Below, one piece after another: positions 7,776 to 31,229 of a DNA stretch of 64,000 nucleotides. The stretch covers positions 1,504,501 to 1,568,500 of the forward strand of contig NZ_CP083546.1 in assembly GCF_025144145.1 (NCBI RefSeq), given 5' to 3'. The notes below the pieces were generated by a model, which worked only from the letters and a program-made list of their open reading frames with translations, searched no databases and was not told the DNA's origin. The position numbers and the translations under genes are program-made. Position 1 is the first letter of the stretch. Each line of letters opens with the position of its first letter. This DNA comes from Leisingera sp. M658. Its GTDB lineage: Bacteria > Pseudomonadota > Alphaproteobacteria > Rhodobacterales > Rhodobacteraceae.

Positions 7776-8990
7776 ATGACAGCCTCCTCAGATGCGCATC
7801 AGCGCCCCCGCGTGAAAATGAAACCCAAATCCAACGCCCGCGCCATCCGGCACGGGTTTCCTTGGGTTTATGCCAACGAACTGGTGACCGACCGCCGCAC
7901 CCGCAAACTGGCGCCCGGCACCTTGGCGGTGCTGGAAGATGAGGCGCAGAACCCGCTGGGACTGGTGTCGGTGAACCCGGACAGCAAGATCATTGCCCGG
8001 ATGCTCGACCGCGATCCGGAAGCGCAGATTGATCAGGCCTGGTTTGCGGCCCGCCTGTCCCGCGCGCTGGAGATGCGCGAACGCCTGTACAGCGCGCCCT
8101 TCTACCGGCTGGTCCATGCCGAATCCGACGGGCTGCCCGGCGTGGTCATCGACCGGTTCGGCGCCGCTTGCGTGGTCCAGCCCAACGCCGCCTGGGCCGA
8201 GATGCATCTGGACATGCTCACCGCGGCGCTGGCGGATGTGACCGGCGTAGAAGTGATCCTGAAAAACGCCGCTGGCCGCACCCGTACCCTGGAAGGGCTG
8301 GACGATCAGAACCAGACCCTGCTGGGCGAAACGCCCGCCGCACCTGTGCCGGTGCAGATGAACGGCGCCACCTATATGGCCGACCTCACCGGCGGCCAGA
8401 AAACCGGGCTGTTCTTCGATCAGCGTGAAAACCATGCCTTCGCCGCCCGCCTCACCGGGCAAGGCGCCAAGGTACTGGATGTATTCTCCCACGTCGGCGG
8501 CTTTGGCCTGGCGATGCTGGCAGGGGGTGCCGCGCACGCCACCTGCGTCGACGGCTCTGCCGCCGCACTTGAGCTGGCGGCCCGGGGCGCCGAAGCCAGC
8601 GGCCACAAGGACAGGTTCACCGCCCGCCAGGGCGATGCGTTCGACGTGCTGGACGCGCTGCAGAAGGAAGGCGAAAGCTTCGACGCCGTTATCTGCGACC
8701 CGCCTGCCTTTGCGCCATCGAAACAGGCGCTGGAGGCGGGCTTGCGGGCCTACGAACGCATTGCCAAACTGGCCGCCCCGCTGGTCAAACCCGGCGGTTA
8801 TCTCGGCCTGTGCTCCTGCTCGCACGCGGCGGATCTCGCCAAATTCCGCAACGCCTCTGCCCGCGGCATCGGCAGATCCGGCCGCCGCAGCACGCTGATC
8901 CACACCGGCTATGCCGGCCCTGACCACCCGCAGCTGCCGCAGCTGGCCGAAAGCGGCTACCTTAAGGCCGTCTTTTTCCGGCTGGACTGA
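7776..8990 (+). CDS. rlmI: Class I SAM-dependent rRNA methyltransferase, RlmI-like
   Basis: A 404-residue protein matching RlmI, which methylates C5 of C1962 in 23S rRNA. An N-terminal PUA-like domain (KSNARAIRHGFPWVYANEL, residues 14-32) is followed by a Rossmann methyltransferase domain with the SAM-binding motif VLDVFSHVGGFGLAML and the catalytic segment ICDPPAFAPSK. ATG at 7776 has GAGGG just upstream; the open frame extends 15 codons further but that part overlaps the preceding terminator. Its stop codon overlaps the start of the PIN gene (TGATG). Confidence 0.9.
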   Translation: MTASSDAHQRPRVKMKPKSNARAIRHGFPWVYANELVTDRRTRKLAPGTLAVLEDEAQNPLGLVSVNPDSKIIARMLDRDPEAQIDQAWFAARLSRALEMRERLYSAPFYRLVHAESDGLPGVVIDRFGAACVVQPNAAWAEMHLDMLTAALADVTGVEVILKNAAGRTRTLEGLDDQNQTLLGETPAAPVPVQMNGATYMADLTGGQKTGLFFDQRENHAFAARLTGQGAKVLDVFSHVGGFGLAMLAGGAAHATCVDGSAAALELAARGAEASGHKDRFTARQGDAFDVLDALQKEGESFDAVICDPPAFAPSKQALEAGLRAYERIAKLAAPLVKPGGYLGLCSCSHAADLAKFRNASARGIGRSGRRSTLIHTGYAGPDHPQLPQLAESGYLKAVFFRLD

Positions 8991-9544
8991 TGGGGATGAA
9001 GCTGCTCCTGGACACTTGCGTGCTTTACCCGACGGTGATGCGGGAGATGCTGCTGGGCGCGGCCAGGCTGGGGCATTTCACCCCGCTCTGGTCTGCGCGC
9101 ATCCTGGGCGAATGGGAGCGCGCCGCGCTGAAACTCGGCCCCGAAGGCGCCGCACAGGCCAAGGCCGAGACCGCTCTGATCCGCACCAATTGGCCCAAGG
9201 CCGAAGTGCCCGCATCTCCGGGCGTTGAATCCCGCCTGTGGCTGCCGGACAGCGCCGACATCCATGTGCTGGCCGCTGCCATCACCGGCCACGCCGACGC
9301 AATTGTTACCCTCAACAACAAGGACTTCCCCCGTCACACCCTGGCCGAGGAAGGCCTGGAACGCATCGGCGCGGACGAACTCCTCTACCGCTTCTGGCTG
9401 CAGGACAGCGCGGGCATGGAGGCCTTGGGCAGCCAAGTCCTGGCCGAGGCCAACCGCCTGTCCGGCGGCAGCTGGGAGATCCGCCCGCTTTTGAAAAAGG
9501 CGCGGCTGCCGCGTCTCGCCAAGGCCTTGTCTTCTTCTTTGTGA
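8990..9544 (+). CDS. PIN-domain protein (RSP_2648 type)
   Basis: A 184-residue PIN-domain protein, predicted metal-dependent RNase. The N-terminus KLLLDTCVLYPTVMRE carries the first acidic residue, and DAIVTLNNKDFP the later conserved segment. It resembles a family that Rhodobacter annotation labels RSP_2648. Translation probably starts at 8990 by coupling to rlmI through TGATG; ATG at 8996 is an alternative. No antitoxin-sized partner lies on either side, so it is not an evident VapBC system. The last codons (LSSSL) come from an intergenic repeat motif that runs through the stop codon. It is linked to rRNA modification by operon position only. Confidence 0.8.
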   Translation: MGMKLLLDTCVLYPTVMREMLLGAARLGHFTPLWSARILGEWERAALKLGPEGAAQAKAETALIRTNWPKAEVPASPGVESRLWLPDSADIHVLAAAITGHADAIVTLNNKDFPRHTLAEEGLERIGADELLYRFWLQDSAGMEALGSQVLAEANRLSGGSWEIRPLLKKARLPRLAKALSSSL

Positions 9545-20672: not shown

Positions 20673-21479
20673 TCAGATGTCCAGATCCACCCAGACCGGC
20701 ACGTGGTCCGAGGGTTTTTCCCGCCCGCGCACATCCTTGTCGATCTGGCAATCGCGCAAGAGGTCGGCGGCCTGCGGCGTCAGCAGGAAATGGTCGATAC
20801 GGATGCCGTCGTCGCGGTTCCACGCACCAGCCTGGTAATCCCAGAAGGAATAATGCCCCGGCCCCTGGTGCCGGGCGCGGAACGCCTCGGTGAAACCAAG
20901 GTTGACGATCCGCTGAAACGCCGCCCGGCTTTCGGGCCGGTGCAGCGCGTCCTCCAGCCAGGCTTCGGGGCGCTTGGCATCCTCGGCCTGCGGGATGATG
21001 TTGTAGTCACCGGCCATCAGTGCCGGCATTTCCTCCGCCAGCAAGGCTTCGGCACGCGCCTTCAACCGTTCCATCCAGGCAAGTTTATAGGCATATTTGC
21101 CGCCCGCCACCGGGCTGCCGTCCGCCTCCAGCTCAACCGGGTTGCCATTGGGAAGGTACAGGCCGCAGATGCGGATCGCCTGCTTGCCGACCACCGTGGC
21201 CTCGATCCAGCGGGCCTGTTCGTCGCTGTCATCGCCGGGCAGGCCGCGGCGCACGTCCTCCAGCGGCAGCTTTGACAGGATTGCCACCCCGTTAAAGCTC
21301 TTCTGGCCGTGGGTCTCGACGTTATAGCCGCGCTCTTCCAGCATTTCGCGCGGAAACGCCTTATCGACTGATTTGATCTCTTGCAGCACCGCCACGTCGG
21401 GCTGGGCTTCATCCAGCCAGTCCGGCAGCGCCTGCGCCCGGGCCTTGATGCCATTGATATTGAATGTGGCGATTTTCAT
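20673..21479 (-). CDS. xth: Exodeoxyribonuclease III
   Basis: A 268-residue AP endonuclease/3'-5' exonuclease of the EEP fold, acting in base excision repair. Motifs: MKIATFNINGIKAR (Asn7), LQEIKSVDKAFP (Glu34 metal ligand), GLYLPNGNP, MAGDYNIIPQAEDAKRPEAW (Asp and Asn), and the C-terminal RIDHFLLTPQ and PSDHVPVWVDL with the catalytic His. Length is typical. It is monocistronic on the minus strand; the next stretch upstream is an AT-rich gene-free region. Confidence 0.95.
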   Translation of the reverse strand: MKIATFNINGIKARAQALPDWLDEAQPDVAVLQEIKSVDKAFPREMLEERGYNVETHGQKSFNGVAILSKLPLEDVRRGLPGDDSDEQARWIEATVVGKQAIRICGLYLPNGNPVELEADGSPVAGGKYAYKLAWMERLKARAEALLAEEMPALMAGDYNIIPQAEDAKRPEAWLEDALHRPESRAAFQRIVNLGFTEAFRARHQGPGHYSFWDYQAGAWNRDDGIRIDHFLLTPQAADLLRDCQIDKDVRGREKPSDHVPVWVDLDI

Positions 21480-21839: not shown

Positions 21840-22508
21840 ATGACTGCTCAGCATAAAATCCAGACCATCCACGCAGCCCGTCAAACTGCAGGCGCCAGCC
21901 TGTTTGAGGGTGATGGGGCAGAGATGTTCTCCTCTGGTTCGGCACCTGAATGTTCCGCGGACCTGACTGCGGGTGAGGGTGTTTCGTTGTTTTCTTCCGG
22001 GTCCATGCCGCAGGCCGCGCAAAGCTGGGCTGGCGGGGAAACCGGGTTGTTCTCCAGCGGTTCAGCGCCTGCGGCCCGCAGCGAAACAGCAGCTGGCGAC
22101 CTGGTGGAGATGTTCTCTTCCGGCTCCGCTCCGGTTGCTCAAAGCGATGCCGCCGCAGGTGATCTGGTGCAAATGTTTTCCTCAGGGTCAGCGCCTGCGG
22201 ATCAATCAGAGATTGCGTCCGGGGATTTGACAGAAATGTATTCTTCCGGTTCTGCTCCTGCGGCGGCACATGAAACCGCGGCAGGGGATCTGACAGAAAT
22301 GTTCTCCTCCGGCTCGGCGCCCGCTGCGCAGGCCGAAACAGGTGCCGGCGATCTGACGGAGATGTTCTCTTCCGGTTCAGCCCCGGCCGCCGCGGCCAAG
22401 ACGGGCGCGGGCGAGGGGACGCATCTGTTCTTTTCCGGTTCTGCCCCCGCAACGGCGGCACGGACCAGCGCGGGCGATGCCACCCGGCTGTTTTCCTCGG
22501 GCAGCTGA
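21840..22508 (+). CDS. Protein with ten tandem 21-residue FSSGSAP repeats
   Basis: A 222-residue protein with a short leader (MTAQHKIQTIHAARQTAGAS, residues 1-20) followed by ten units. The consensus is A-G-D-L-T-E-M-F-S-S-G-S-A-P and then about seven variable, Ala- and Glu-rich residues. Units begin at residues 24, 45, 66, 86, 107, 128, 149, 170, 191 and 212. Units 4-8 are closest to consensus, the third is one residue short, and the last ends FSSGS at the stop codon. There is no signal peptide, membrane segment or cysteine inside the repeats apart from one in unit 1. Neighbouring units share the protein motif but differ at many synonymous positions, which points to selection on the peptide. 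I do not recognise a function. It could be a self-assembling or adhesive repeat protein, or a multi-core peptide precursor. Confidence 0.8.
   Translation: MTAQHKIQTIHAARQTAGASLFEGDGAEMFSSGSAPECSADLTAGEGVSLFSSGSMPQAAQSWAGGETGLFSSGSAPAARSETAAGDLVEMFSSGSAPVAQSDAAAGDLVQMFSSGSAPADQSEIASGDLTEMYSSGSAPAAAHETAAGDLTEMFSSGSAPAAQAETGAGDLTEMFSSGSAPAAAAKTGAGEGTHLFFSGSAPATAARTSAGDATRLFSSGS
21909..22505 (+). repeat. 63-bp in-frame tandem repeat array (ten units)
   Basis: This is the DNA array encoding the FSSGSAP units. Unit length is 63 bp except the third (60 bp) and the truncated last. Units are not identical at the DNA level. Confidence 0.9.
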
Positions 22509-22509
22509 T

Positions 22510-22572
22510 CCGGGCAGGGCCGGTTTTCCTGCCCGGCTCCTGTCCCTGGGCGGCCCCGCAGCCGGGGCCGCC
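22510..22572 (+). promoter_or_regulatory. Two strong hairpins between the FSSGSAP gene and the next gene
   Basis: CCGGGCAGG/CCTGCCCGG (22510-22518 with 22528-22536; loop contains TTTT) is followed by GGCGGCCCCG/CGGGGCCGCC (22549-22558 with 22563-22572; loop CAGC). They start right after the stop codon. They could attenuate transcription into the downstream genes or protect the upstream mRNA. Confidence 0.55.
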
Positions 22573-22606
22573 GATACCGCGCCGCATCTATCCGAACGAG
22601 GTTCCC

Positions 22607-23668
22607 ATGGCCCAGATCATCCCGTTTTTCTCTCCTGCCGCCCGCCAGTCCCGGGCCTGTGCGCAAGAGACGCTGATTGCCGGTTTCGCAACGCACCGGC
22701 GCAGCCAGGAGGACGTTTTCTGGCTCAAGGAGAACGCCGAGCTGCTGAATATTCTGGAATGCACTGGGGCGGATGTTGCCGCTGATGCCCTGCAGCCCTT
22801 GCAGCAATTTTACGATGGTGCGGCGCGTCATATCAGTTTTTTCCGGCAGTATTACCGCTTTATCCTGTCGATCTGTCTGGACCTGGAGGACCTGGGCCTG
22901 CCGGGGCAGACCGGGGTGCAACTGGCAGGCTGGGTTTCAAACCAGGGGTTGGCGCAGGCCGAGCTGTCCGATTTGCAGCGCGCCGAGGCCCGGCGGCTGC
23001 TGGCGCGGCGCGGGATAGACCTGATCGACGACGGGCTGGACGACCGGCTGCGCGGTTTCATTTCGAACCCGCAGACCTTTGCCATTCCCAACAAGAAAGC
23101 AGCTTACGAGCTGACCCATATTGTTTTCTATCTCTCTGAATACGGCCGCCGCGATCCGGGCCTGCCGGAGGCGGCGCTCACCAGTCTGGAATTTGCCGGT
23201 CTGGTGGCCTTTTTGGATCAGAATGCCGACCTGCTGGCAGAGATCTGCATCGCGCTGCGGTTCGCCGGCCAGCAGCCGCCTGCGGCCTGGGAGGCGTGGC
23301 TTGACCGGCAGGTTTCGGCCTATATGCTCGCTAAGGGAGAATTTTATGGACATCAGGATGCGTATCACGAGTATTTTGTGGTCAACTGGCTCATGCTGAC
23401 GTCCGGGCGTCCGGCCTTTCGGCAGGCAGTCCCGATGGGCGGGGTGCATGTGTCGGCGCAGCAGGGAGGGAGCATTTTGAGGAGCCTGTCAGAAGCGGTT
23501 TTCGACGCCGGGATGGCGCGCAACAGCTGGAGCGCAGTGAAAGCGCGCGCCGAGGCTGTCCTGAGCGAGGAGGAGCACGGGCTGCTCACCGCGGCAGAGC
23601 GCAGCTGTGCAAGGTTCGCAGGATTTTTCGAAGGTTTCGCCCGGGCGGGCAGCGCGGGGGCCGCGTGA
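22607..23668 (+). CDS. Unknown helical protein in the FSSGSAP locus
   Basis: A 353-residue soluble protein starting MAQIIPFFSPAARQSRACAQ. It is mostly helical by composition, with conserved-looking segments DVFWLKENAELLNILECTG (near residues 36-54), FYDGAARHISFFRQYYRF, CLDLEDLGLPG and YGHQDAYHEYFVVNWLM. No signal peptide, transmembrane segment or catalytic motif is obvious. It looks like an uncharacterised family seen in other roseobacters, but I cannot name it. GAGG precedes the ATG. Its stop overlaps the start of the EamA gene (TGATG), so the two are coupled. Co-occurrence with the repeat protein suggests a joint role. Confidence 0.75.
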   Translation: MAQIIPFFSPAARQSRACAQETLIAGFATHRRSQEDVFWLKENAELLNILECTGADVAADALQPLQQFYDGAARHISFFRQYYRFILSICLDLEDLGLPGQTGVQLAGWVSNQGLAQAELSDLQRAEARRLLARRGIDLIDDGLDDRLRGFISNPQTFAIPNKKAAYELTHIVFYLSEYGRRDPGLPEAALTSLEFAGLVAFLDQNADLLAEICIALRFAGQQPPAAWEAWLDRQVSAYMLAKGEFYGHQDAYHEYFVVNWLMLTSGRPAFRQAVPMGGVHVSAQQGGSILRSLSEAVFDAGMARNSWSAVKARAEAVLSEEEHGLLTAAERSCARFAGFFEGFARAGSAGAA

Positions 23669-24585
23669 TGGTCGGCACCCGCAATCAGGCCTTGGGCGGT
23701 GCGCTGCTGGTGGTTGCCTATACCGGGTTGATCGCCTCGGCCGACGGGATCACCAAATTGCTGGCGGGCCAGTATGCGGCGGCGCAGCTTTATGCGCTGT
23801 CCGGCGCGATGGTGGTGGGGTTCTGCCTGCTGGCGGACCGGCTGCCGGCGCAGCGCGGCGGCTTCCGCACCCGCTGCCCGCGGGCGATGACGCTCAGGTC
23901 AGTGGCGACGCTGATCGCTGCGGTCTGTTTCTTCTATGCCTTCCGGCTGCTGCCCTTTGCCGAAGTGTTTGTCTTTATCGGCCTGATGCCGCTGCTGGCC
24001 GGCGCCATGTCGGGTCTGGTTTTGAAAGAGCCAGTGCGCCCGGCGGCCTGGATTGCGCTGGCTGCGGGATTTTGCGGCGTGCTGTTCCTGCTGCCGCATG
24101 GCAACGCGGACGCGCATGCATCCTGGGGCCATTTCGTGGCCTTTGGGGCCGTGCTTTCCGGCACGTTTTCCATGACCATGGCACGGTTTATCGGCCGTTA
24201 TGAAAGCAACGCGCTGGCGCAGGTGTTCTATCCCAACCTGACGCTGTGCGGCGCAATGCTGTTGGCGCTGCCGTTTGTATGGGTGCCGATGCCGCTTGCT
24301 GATGTGGGGTGGGCTGCGGCCTATGCCTTCTTGTTGTTCGGCGCGCGCTGGCTGCTGGTGGTGGCGTTGCGGCTCATGGCTTCTTATGCGGTGACGCCGC
24401 TGATGAACCTGCAGTTCATCTGGATGGCGGTTATCGGTTCAGTCTTCTTTGGCGAGTTTCCGCCGGCCACCACCTATATCGGCGGCGCCATTGTGATTGC
24501 GTCCGGTCTGTATCTGGTTTGGGATCAGTTTGCCCCGGCCTTGCCGAGGCTGCGCGGCCAGGGACGGTTGCAGACCGATCCTTAG
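23668..24585 (+). CDS. EamA/DMT-family transporter
   Basis: A 305-residue drug/metabolite transporter with about ten transmembrane helices in two EamA halves. The first half ends around FCGVLFLLPHGN; the second starts around FVAFGAVLSGTFSMTMARFIG and ends with IGGAIVIASGLYLVWDQF. Such carriers usually export small metabolites. ATG at 23668 overlaps the stop of the preceding gene by one base, so it is translationally coupled to it. The substrate is unknown; the context hints at export of something linked to the FSSGSAP locus. A terminator-like repeat follows. Confidence 0.85.
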   Translation: MVGTRNQALGGALLVVAYTGLIASADGITKLLAGQYAAAQLYALSGAMVVGFCLLADRLPAQRGGFRTRCPRAMTLRSVATLIAAVCFFYAFRLLPFAEVFVFIGLMPLLAGAMSGLVLKEPVRPAAWIALAAGFCGVLFLLPHGNADAHASWGHFVAFGAVLSGTFSMTMARFIGRYESNALAQVFYPNLTLCGAMLLALPFVWVPMPLADVGWAAAYAFLLFGARWLLVVALRLMASYAVTPLMNLQFIWMAVIGSVFFGEFPPATTYIGGAIVIASGLYLVWDQFAPALPRLRGQGRLQTDP

Positions 24586-24720: not shown

Positions 24721-25044
24721 TCACATCGAAAACGAGGTGCCGCAGCCGCAGCTGGAGGTGGCGTTGGGGTTCTCGATGGTGAAGCGGGCGCCGATCAGCT
24801 CCTCGGTGAAATCGATCACTGCGTTTTCCAGGAAGGGCAGGGAAACCGTGTCGACGACGACCTTTTCGCCTTGGCCCTCAAGCACCAGATCTTCGGGTTT
24901 CGCCTCGTCCAGCGCAATCTCGTACTGAAAGCCCGAGCAGCCGCCGCCTTCGACCGCGACGCGCAGCGCCTGGCCCTGGTCCGCGGCGCCGATCTCGGCC
25001 AGCCGGGCAAAGGCGCGGTCAGTGACTTTCGGGGGCAGGTTCAT
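24721..25044 (-). CDS. erpA: Iron-sulfur cluster insertion protein ErpA
   Basis: A 107-residue A-type Fe-S carrier with the three conserved cysteines: Cys36 in EGGGCSGFQY and Cys99 and Cys101 in SSCGCGTSFSM. It passes [Fe-S] clusters to target enzymes. It could equally be labelled IscA/HesB; ErpA is preferred for the GGGCSGFQY segment and because it stands apart from an isc/suf cluster next to dgt, as in many alphaproteobacteria. Confidence 0.9.
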   Translation of the reverse strand: MNLPPKVTDRAFARLAEIGAADQGQALRVAVEGGGCSGFQYEIALDEAKPEDLVLEGQGEKVVVDTVSLPFLENAVIDFTEELIGARFTIENPNATSSCGCGTSFSM

Positions 25045-29882: not shown

Positions 29883-29999
29883 CCAATGGGGCGCCAGCCC
29901 CTGCGGGTATAAATCGCGCAGTCCGCCGGACTGAGGCAGTTCAAGAGACCCAGCGGCAGCGCAGCCCATGCGCCGCCAAACCGGGCAGTGAGGCGGAAA

Positions 30000-31229
30000 A
30001 TGGCGTATTTTGCGCAGGCGGGCCAAGGCCGCGCCTATGCACAAGGCAGCGGTCACGAACAGGACACTGCCCCGGAAAGCACATACACACAGCAGTATTC
30101 CGGTCAGCAATATGCCGGCCAGAACTCCGGTGGCCAGAACTCCGGCGGCCAGAACTCCGGAGGTCAGCACTATTCCGGGCCAGGGGCCGAGCCGAATTAC
30201 GGTTATGAAGACCCTGCCTATGGCTATCAGCCCGAAGGGCAGGGCCATGGCCCCCAGGACTATGCCGTTTTTGCTGCTCCTGCAGGGCTGCGGGCGCGAT
30301 TCTCGAAATCGCTGAGCATTCTGGGGGCAGTTGCGTCGATTGCGCTGGTCGCCGGGGTGGGCTTTTGGGGCTACAAGCTGGTGATGCGGGATGTCAGCGG
30401 TGTCCCAGTGGTGCGTGCAGCCGAAGGACCGATGCGCGAACAGCCTGTGCTGCCGGGCGGCTCTCAGGCGGATCACCAGGGGCTGGCTGTCAACGCGGTT
30501 GCCGCCAGCGGCAGCGCTGAAGCCCCTGCCGACCGGCTGACCCTGGCGCCTGCCGCCATTGAGCTGACCGAAGATGACAAACCGCTGCCCGAGCTGGCCG
30601 CCGAGGCCGCGCCGGCAGCTGCCGTGCCTGCGGCCCCGGTTGAACCCGGCGTTCCTGCAGTGCCCGGCGTCAGCGAAGAGGCCGTGGCCTCGTTCCAGAA
30701 CGGCGACATCGACGCGCTGGTTGCCGAACTGGCGCGTGAGGCCGAGCCGCTTTCCGCTGCGGTACCCGCGTCGGCGCAGGCCCCTGCCATCGTGCAGCCG
30801 GAACCGCTGCAGCCGGCGCTTGCCGCGGCAGTCCCGTCGCCTGCAATTCTGAATGCGCCGGGGGTCAAGGTCTCGCTGCGGCCATCGGCCCGGCCCGCAA
30901 GGTTCAGCCCGGCTCCGGCCGCAGCCGCACCGGCAGCACGTGCCGGAACCGTGGATGTTGATCCGGCAACCCTTGCGGCAGGCACAAGGCTGGCGCAGCT
31001 TGGCGCCTATGAAAGCCCAGAGGTGGCGCGCGCCGAATGGGACCGCATCCATGCCCGTTTCGCGGACTATCTTGAGGGCAAGCAGCGGGTGATTCAGCGC
31101 GCCGAAAGCGGCGGGCGGACTTTCTACCGGCTGCGGGCGATGGGCTTTGCCGGCCTGTCGGACGCCCGCCGGTTCTGCTCGGCGCTGGTGGCTGGCAATG
31201 CCGACTGCATTCCGGTAACCACACGGTAA
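30000..31229 (+). CDS. SPOR-domain membrane protein
   Basis: A 409-residue bitopic protein. The cytoplasmic N-terminus (residues 1-98) is rich in Gly, Tyr and Gln and holds tandem QNSGG pentapeptides (15-bp repeats at about 30120-30165). A transmembrane helix follows (near residues 103-125, ILGAVASIALVAGVGFWGY). After a long Ala/Pro-rich periplasmic linker comes a C-terminal SPOR domain (about 325-409; LAQLGAYESPEVARAEWDRI to AGNADCIPVT) that binds denuded peptidoglycan at the septum. It precedes nagZ, also a wall gene. GAGGCGGA precedes the ATG at 30000. Confidence 0.88.
   Translation: MAYFAQAGQGRAYAQGSGHEQDTAPESTYTQQYSGQQYAGQNSGGQNSGGQNSGGQHYSGPGAEPNYGYEDPAYGYQPEGQGHGPQDYAVFAAPAGLRARFSKSLSILGAVASIALVAGVGFWGYKLVMRDVSGVPVVRAAEGPMREQPVLPGGSQADHQGLAVNAVAASGSAEAPADRLTLAPAAIELTEDDKPLPELAAEAAPAAAVPAAPVEPGVPAVPGVSEEAVASFQNGDIDALVAELAREAEPLSAAVPASAQAPAIVQPEPLQPALAAAVPSPAILNAPGVKVSLRPSARPARFSPAPAAAAPAARAGTVDVDPATLAAGTRLAQLGAYESPEVARAEWDRIHARFADYLEGKQRVIQRAESGGRTFYRLRAMGFAGLSDARRFCSALVAGNADCIPVTTR

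What the first reader, a model, noticed from the sequence alone, without database searches (positions are those of the whole stretch)
21840..22508. Ten-unit FSSGSAP repeat protein under selection for its peptide motif
The protein is a short leader plus ten 21-residue units with the near-constant core G-D-L-T-E-M-F-S-S-G-S-A-P. Adjacent units such as 22284-22346 and 22347-22409 differ at most third codon positions (Gly, Thr, Ser and Ala codons all vary) yet keep the same core residues. That is the mark of old repeats held by selection, not a recent slippage array. It has no signal peptide and no known fold that I can name. Alternatives are a beta-solenoid-like assembly protein, an adhesive or surface protein exported without a classical signal, or a multi-core peptide precursor.
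Basis: partly seen in the sequence, partly recalled or inferred. Interest (0 to 1): 0.72.

Follow-up and report, generated by a model that had tools for sequence, protein, structure and literature searches.

The report
Multi-core peptide gene with partner enzyme
A marine bacterium's ten-fold repeat protein looks like the precursor of small modified peptides: it occurs together with one unstudied enzyme, and its repeated motif is nearly uniform within a genome but differs between genera, which would make it an undescribed kind of bacterial peptide system.

Summary
The repeat gene (21840-22508) is real: a 23-residue leader and ten units, 8 of 10 with FSSGS. The core is under strong purifying selection (pN/pS 0.16) and the linker much less (0.65). 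Downstream lie a DUF6902 gene and an EamA transporter gene. In 394 genomes of the family the repeat is found in 98, all of which carry DUF6902, and in 0 of 286 without it. The core differs between genera (SSGS, TSGL, TSWS, TTSC, CSAS and others) but is nearly uniform within a gene. DUF6902 is predicted to be all-helical, with conserved Tyr, His, Asp, Glu and His. It passes the cut-off of Pfam DUF6895, a family with one member published as a lasso-peptide epimerase (title seen only). Four of five remote DUF6895 genes examined also follow a short peptide gene. Best reading: a multi-core RiPP-type precursor, its modifying enzyme (perhaps a peptide epimerase) and a possible exporter. Modification, cleavage and export are inferred, not shown. 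A beta-solenoid is drawn by AF2 at low confidence and is less likely.

The parts
21840..22508 (+). Repeat protein, 222 aa: probable multi-core precursor
21840..21908 (+). Leader, 23 residues
   Evidence: first unit starts at residue 24; relatives aligned
21909..22505 (+). Ten units starting at 21909, 21972, 22032, 22095, 22158, 22221, 22284, 22347, 22410 and 22473; the last stops at its core
22512..22572 (+). Two predicted stem-loops between repeat gene and DUF6902 gene
   Evidence: z -1.97 for 22509-22606; 5 of 200 shuffles fold as well
22607..23668 (+). DUF6902 protein, 353 aa; candidate peptide-modifying enzyme
   Evidence: PF21843 E 1.2e-143 and PF21836 (DUF6895) E 1e-24, both over cut-off; model pLDDT 90.2
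23665..24585 (+). EamA-type transporter, overlapping the end of the DUF6902 gene; possible exporter
   Evidence: PF00892 E 2.3e-12; same place in 62 of 79 and 71 of 80 DUF6902 loci
20673..21479 (-). Flank: exonuclease III-like gene (named xthA by eye)
24721..25044 (-). Flank: HesB/IscA-like gene (named by eye)

Best explanation
The repeat protein is a multi-core precursor of a RiPP-type peptide. Each unit is a recognition stretch G-[D/E]-x4 followed by a core F-x-[S/T]-x-x. The adjoining DUF6902 enzyme modifies each core of the array; the likeliest chemistry is L-to-D epimerisation, because the related family DUF6895 has a member published as a lasso-peptide epimerase. The cores are then released by a protease not encoded in the cassette and exported, perhaps by the EamA protein, as genus- or species-specific peptides. 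Shown: the repeat, selection on its core, uniformity within genes with change between genera, co-occurrence with DUF6902, presence or absence of the cassette between the same two flanking genes, and similarity of DUF6902 to DUF6895. Inferred: that DUF6902 acts on the core, the chemistry, cleavage, export and role.
For: Core pN/pS 0.155 against linker 0.65 in the window. In the same 394 genomes DUF6902 is in 108 and the repeat in 98; 98 of 98 have DUF6902, 0 of 286 without it have the repeat (Fisher p 8.7e-82). Within-gene identity of two cores 0.915, between genera 0.096, linkers within a gene 0.20. DUF6902 passes the DUF6895 cut-off; reference 371 of PMC13352647 is titled as a DUF6895 lasso-peptide epimerase. 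Y167, H171, D208 and E212 are invariant in 10 of 10 DUF6902/DUF6895 proteins. Four of five remote DUF6895 genes follow a short peptide gene. EamA is directly downstream in 62 of 79 and 71 of 80 loci and in 0 of 13 loci without DUF6902.
Against: No product, modification or cleavage has been seen. No protease family was recognised by eye among the conserved neighbours. EamA has no hit in 17 of 79 and 9 of 80 DUF6902 loci. The epimerase link rests on a title; the paper is not held. Foldseek found no PDB match at E 0.001 or less, so fold gives no function. Co-variation of enzyme and core could not be shown. In 2 of 10 DUF6902 genomes without a profile hit I saw no array at all.
Confidence: 0.42

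Rival explanations
1. The repeat protein stays whole and acts as a multivalent scaffold. DUF6902 is a binding partner that holds one F-x-[S/T]-x-x motif in its central groove; no covalent change is made.
For: Same co-occurrence; no protease in the cassette; an all-helical toroid-like model could be a binding module; one locus reads the array and DUF6902 in one open frame (L096/L183).
Against: Conserved Tyr, His, Asp, Glu and His shared with DUF6895 look catalytic (inference); DUF6895 has a published enzyme member; arrays as short as two units exist.
Confidence: 0.23
2. Multi-core precursor as above, but DUF6902 does other chemistry on the core (for example on the Ser/Thr/Cys at the third core position).
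For: Third core position is S, T or C in most modal cores; the distant VIA-align rows include prenyltransferases and terpene cyclases.
Against: The VIA-align scores are in the range the tool calls ordinary for helical folds; the one named DUF6895 member is an epimerase (title).
Confidence: 0.2
3. A structural beta-solenoid or surface protein in which the conserved core is the folded turn or strand.
For: AF2 draws two strands per unit, pLDDT 63.4, pTM 0.65.
Against: AF2 is reported to give unrealistic solenoids for repeats (abstract of PMC11795689); irregular core spacings in other arrays; does not explain pairing with DUF6902.
Confidence: 0.06

Closest known systems
Pfam DUF6895 (PF21836), with the lasso-peptide epimerase of reference 371 in PMC13352647 (ACS Catal 2026; title seen only)
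   Same: Window enzyme scores 87.9 bits against a cut-off of 23.8 and shares Y167, H171, D208 and E212; remote DUF6895 genes also follow short peptide genes.
   Different: DUF6902 has its own Pfam family (478.7 bits); the precursor here has ten cores, and no lasso genes adjoin it.
MslH, lasso-peptide MS-271 epimerase (PMC10406935; search listing and one passage seen)
   Same: Would make a D-residue in a ribosomal peptide, if DUF6902 is an epimerase.
   Different: MslH is compared with YmdB and described as alpha-beta-beta-alpha; DUF6902 is modelled as all-helical.
Multi-core RiPP precursors such as those of cyanobactins (recalled)
   Same: Leader plus repeated recognition-and-core units.
   Different: None of the enzymes known from those classes was recognised by eye among the conserved neighbours.
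FxSxx-COOH peptides with radical SAM enzymes (recalled; search of papers gave none)
   Same: Ends in F-x-S-x-x.
   Different: No NCBIfam match over cut-off; no radical SAM gene in the three-gene cassette; motif repeated internally.

Membership tests
RiPP locus | Precursor gene with leader and core part | tested here: met
   Sequence architecture only: leader plus ten cores, conserved in relatives.
RiPP locus | Dedicated modifying enzyme for the core | tested here: inconclusive
   Co-occurrence 98 of 98 and likeness to DUF6895; activity untested.
RiPP locus | Modified peptide product | not testable with these tools
   Needs mass spectrometry.
DUF6895 (PF21836) | Score above Pfam cut-off | tested here: met
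   87.9 bits, cut-off 23.8, residues 29-231.
DUF6895 (PF21836) | Peptide epimerase activity and the published catalytic residues | not testable with these tools
   Paper not held.
Lasso peptide locus | Lasso cyclase and leader peptidase beside the precursor | tested here: not met
   The cassette holds only repeat, DUF6902 and EamA genes, flanked by xthA and HesB genes.
FxSxx-COOH radical SAM peptides (recalled) | NCBIfam match and radical SAM partner | tested here: not met
   No match over cut-off; no such gene in the three-gene cassette.
Beta-solenoid proteins | Regular coil fold | tested here: inconclusive
   pLDDT 63.4, pTM 0.65.

The most novel reading that the evidence does not exclude
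A new RiPP class found in about a quarter of the sampled genera of this family: DUF6902 alone converts every core of a polypeptide array into a D-amino-acid-containing peptide. The array is homogenised within a genome and its core is replaced wholesale between genera, so that the peptides act as species-specific signals or weapons kept in step by concerted evolution.
Probability: 0.28. Interest if true: 0.9.

Novelty: new variant of a known kind. Interest (0 to 1): 0.72.

Why it matters
It gives an unstudied enzyme family (DUF6902) a probable substrate whose target motif is repeated many times per protein, which makes its chemistry easy to assay. If DUF6902 is an epimerase, one gene pair would be a minimal source of D-residues in ribosomal peptides. 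Uniform cores within a gene that change wholesale between genera are a natural experiment in concerted evolution, with dozens of core variants ready for testing enzyme specificity and any signalling role.

Tried and rejected
Recent slippage of the window array: rejected, synonymous sites between units are saturated in core and linker. Some other genera do hold near-identical recent units (for example L071 and L087). Phage or plasmid origin: no DUF6902 relative in viral contigs or plasmids.

Literature: DUF6902 gave 0 papers, DUF6749, a name from memory, 0, DUF6895 1. Other term searches listed nothing that I recognised as this locus; two searches were narrow and returned 0. The library holds only openly licensed PMC papers, so absence there is weak evidence.

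Co-variation of single DUF6902 columns with the core: about 3 independent pairs on well-supported branches in the example shown, and my script's ranking of the results did not work, so nothing is concluded. Stem-loops between the genes: 13 sequences, z from +0.80 to -3.81, too uneven to build on. A first count of uniformity kept only near-modal units and is biased; one search replaces it. The pooled pN/pS kept only units within two residues of the modal core, which lowers the core figure. A second array in G097 stands beside xthA at a contig end and is probably the broken start of the same locus. Foldseek gave no confident match for DUF6902.

Full report
What is there. The ORF at 21840-22508 (+) encodes 222 residues: a 23-residue leader and ten units of 20-21 residues, the last cut at the end of its core. 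The gene is single in this genome. A repeat ORF of the same kind was found beside DUF6902 in 21 of 21 genomes of the genus, the window's own included. Named relatives put the genus as Leisingera (DUF6902 up to 97% identical).

Selection. Between the ten window units pN/pS is 0.155 in the core, 0.56 before it and 0.65 in the linker. Over 206 adjacent unit pairs with diverged linkers from the one-per-genus set it is 0.079, 0.44 and 0.90. That pooled set kept only units within two residues of the modal core, so its core figure is too low by some amount; the window figure has no such filter (10 of 10 units used).

The partner gene. After 98 bases comes a 353-residue DUF6902 protein (E 1.2e-143) that also passes the DUF6895 cut-off (E 1e-24), and an EamA-type transporter gene overlaps its end. 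DUF6902 is in 108 of 394 sampled family genomes (107 of 393 genera) and in 25 of 61 genomes of a relatives sample, one below cut-off. A repeat profile matches 98 of the same 394 genomes. All 98 are among the 108, and 0 of the 286 others match (Fisher p 8.7e-82). Of the ten DUF6902 genomes without a profile match, seven have a divergent array by eye (cores IAGL, MCCS, MSCS, TTSC, SPSC, PTSN, and MAQSFSAP), one holds only a fragment at a contig end, and in two (G083, G331) I saw none.

Loci compared. I fetched 80 of the 108 loci with flanks. One, L141, had no tblastn hit to the window protein and was dropped, leaving 79. The best 80 of 389 named relatives were added. A unit profile made by script hits the ORF upstream of DUF6902 in 133 of 159 and, apart from L096/L183, no other ORF; in L096/L183 the array runs in frame into DUF6902. 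Of the other 24 loci, 23 have variant cores read by eye and L128 has none.

The cassette. In the set of 79, xthA is hit in 75, all divergent and upstream, EamA directly downstream in 62, HesB in 71 and dGTPase in 71; in the named 80 the counts are 76, 71, 73 and 72. In 13 genomes without DUF6902, HesB is near xthA in 12 and EamA is hit in none of the loci of about 3-3.8 kb; the thirteenth (L249) is cut short. So repeat, DUF6902 and, in most cases, EamA come and go between the same two genes. The names xthA, HesB and dGTPase are given by eye.

Diversity of the core. Anchored on G-x5-[F/Y], whatever follows, 484 of 508 units in 71 genes of the genus set carry their gene's modal core, and 55 of 71 genes are unanimous. 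Of the 24 exceptions 14 look like chance matches outside the core position and 10 are real variants. Two units share the core with probability 0.915 within a gene and 0.096 between genera; linkers within a gene 0.20. In the named set, weighted to close relatives, the figures are 573 of 587 units in 78 genes, 0.945, 0.209 and 0.13. Thirty-five modal cores occur in 78 genes. On a DUF6902 tree of 78 rows the core needs 46 changes (shuffled mean 57.5), and neighbours such as L074 (CSAS, 8 units) and L075 (SSGS, 8 units) differ throughout; that fork has SH-aLRT 89 and only 10 of 75 inner branches are starred. A few genes mix two cores, such as L155 and L182. Uniformity within a gene with change between genera implies concerted evolution together with selection; this is inference.

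The epimerase lead. A review (PMC13352647; [quoted passage not shown] I saw the title only; the paper is not held. DUF6895 matched 7 of 289 class genomes, 4 over cut-off, and 13 of 398 phylum genomes, 11 over cut-off; several are DUF6902 of this family. I examined the five over-cut-off cases that I could set apart from DUF6902. Four have a short peptide gene just upstream: L232 (GPWFVL), L233 (GPWYIYK and GPWFVLK), L234 (DWTFVSPNYVYK and DWTFISHNYVYK) and L235 (NAWAFIVKGKFVFK). The fifth, L236, a short protein, shows none that I recognised. So the tie to small peptides is wider than this window, on a small sample.

What is not shown. No product, modification, cleavage or export has been seen, and no protease family was recognised by eye among conserved neighbours. 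AF2 draws a beta-solenoid for the repeat protein (mean pLDDT 63.4, pTM 0.65), but a paper whose outline and abstract I read reports unrealistic AF2 solenoids for repeats (PMC11795689). In the genus set core spacings are 20 (218 of 454) or 21 (186), but also 8 (15), 17 (8) and others. An intact scaffold remains possible.

Verdict. I rate it a new variant of a known kind, with a real chance of being a new class.

Noticed in passing
   Followed up: partly
L155 and L182: One gene holds two core types (TSGS with TTSA; SSGS with STSC), the second with SSGS only at its ends.
   Followed up: no
L232:7653-7847, L233:8910-9338 (-), L234:7494-7907, L235 about 8840-9076 (-): Short peptide genes with W-rich or GPW motifs, two of them with the motif twice, just upstream of remote DUF6895 genes: possible further precursor families.
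   Followed up: partly
window 22512-22572: Two GC-rich stem-loops between the repeat gene and DUF6902; related loci often have one, but z-scores are uneven.
   Followed up: partly
window 29988-31229 (+): A protein with a short repeat near its start (GQNSGGQNSGGQNSGG).
   Followed up: no
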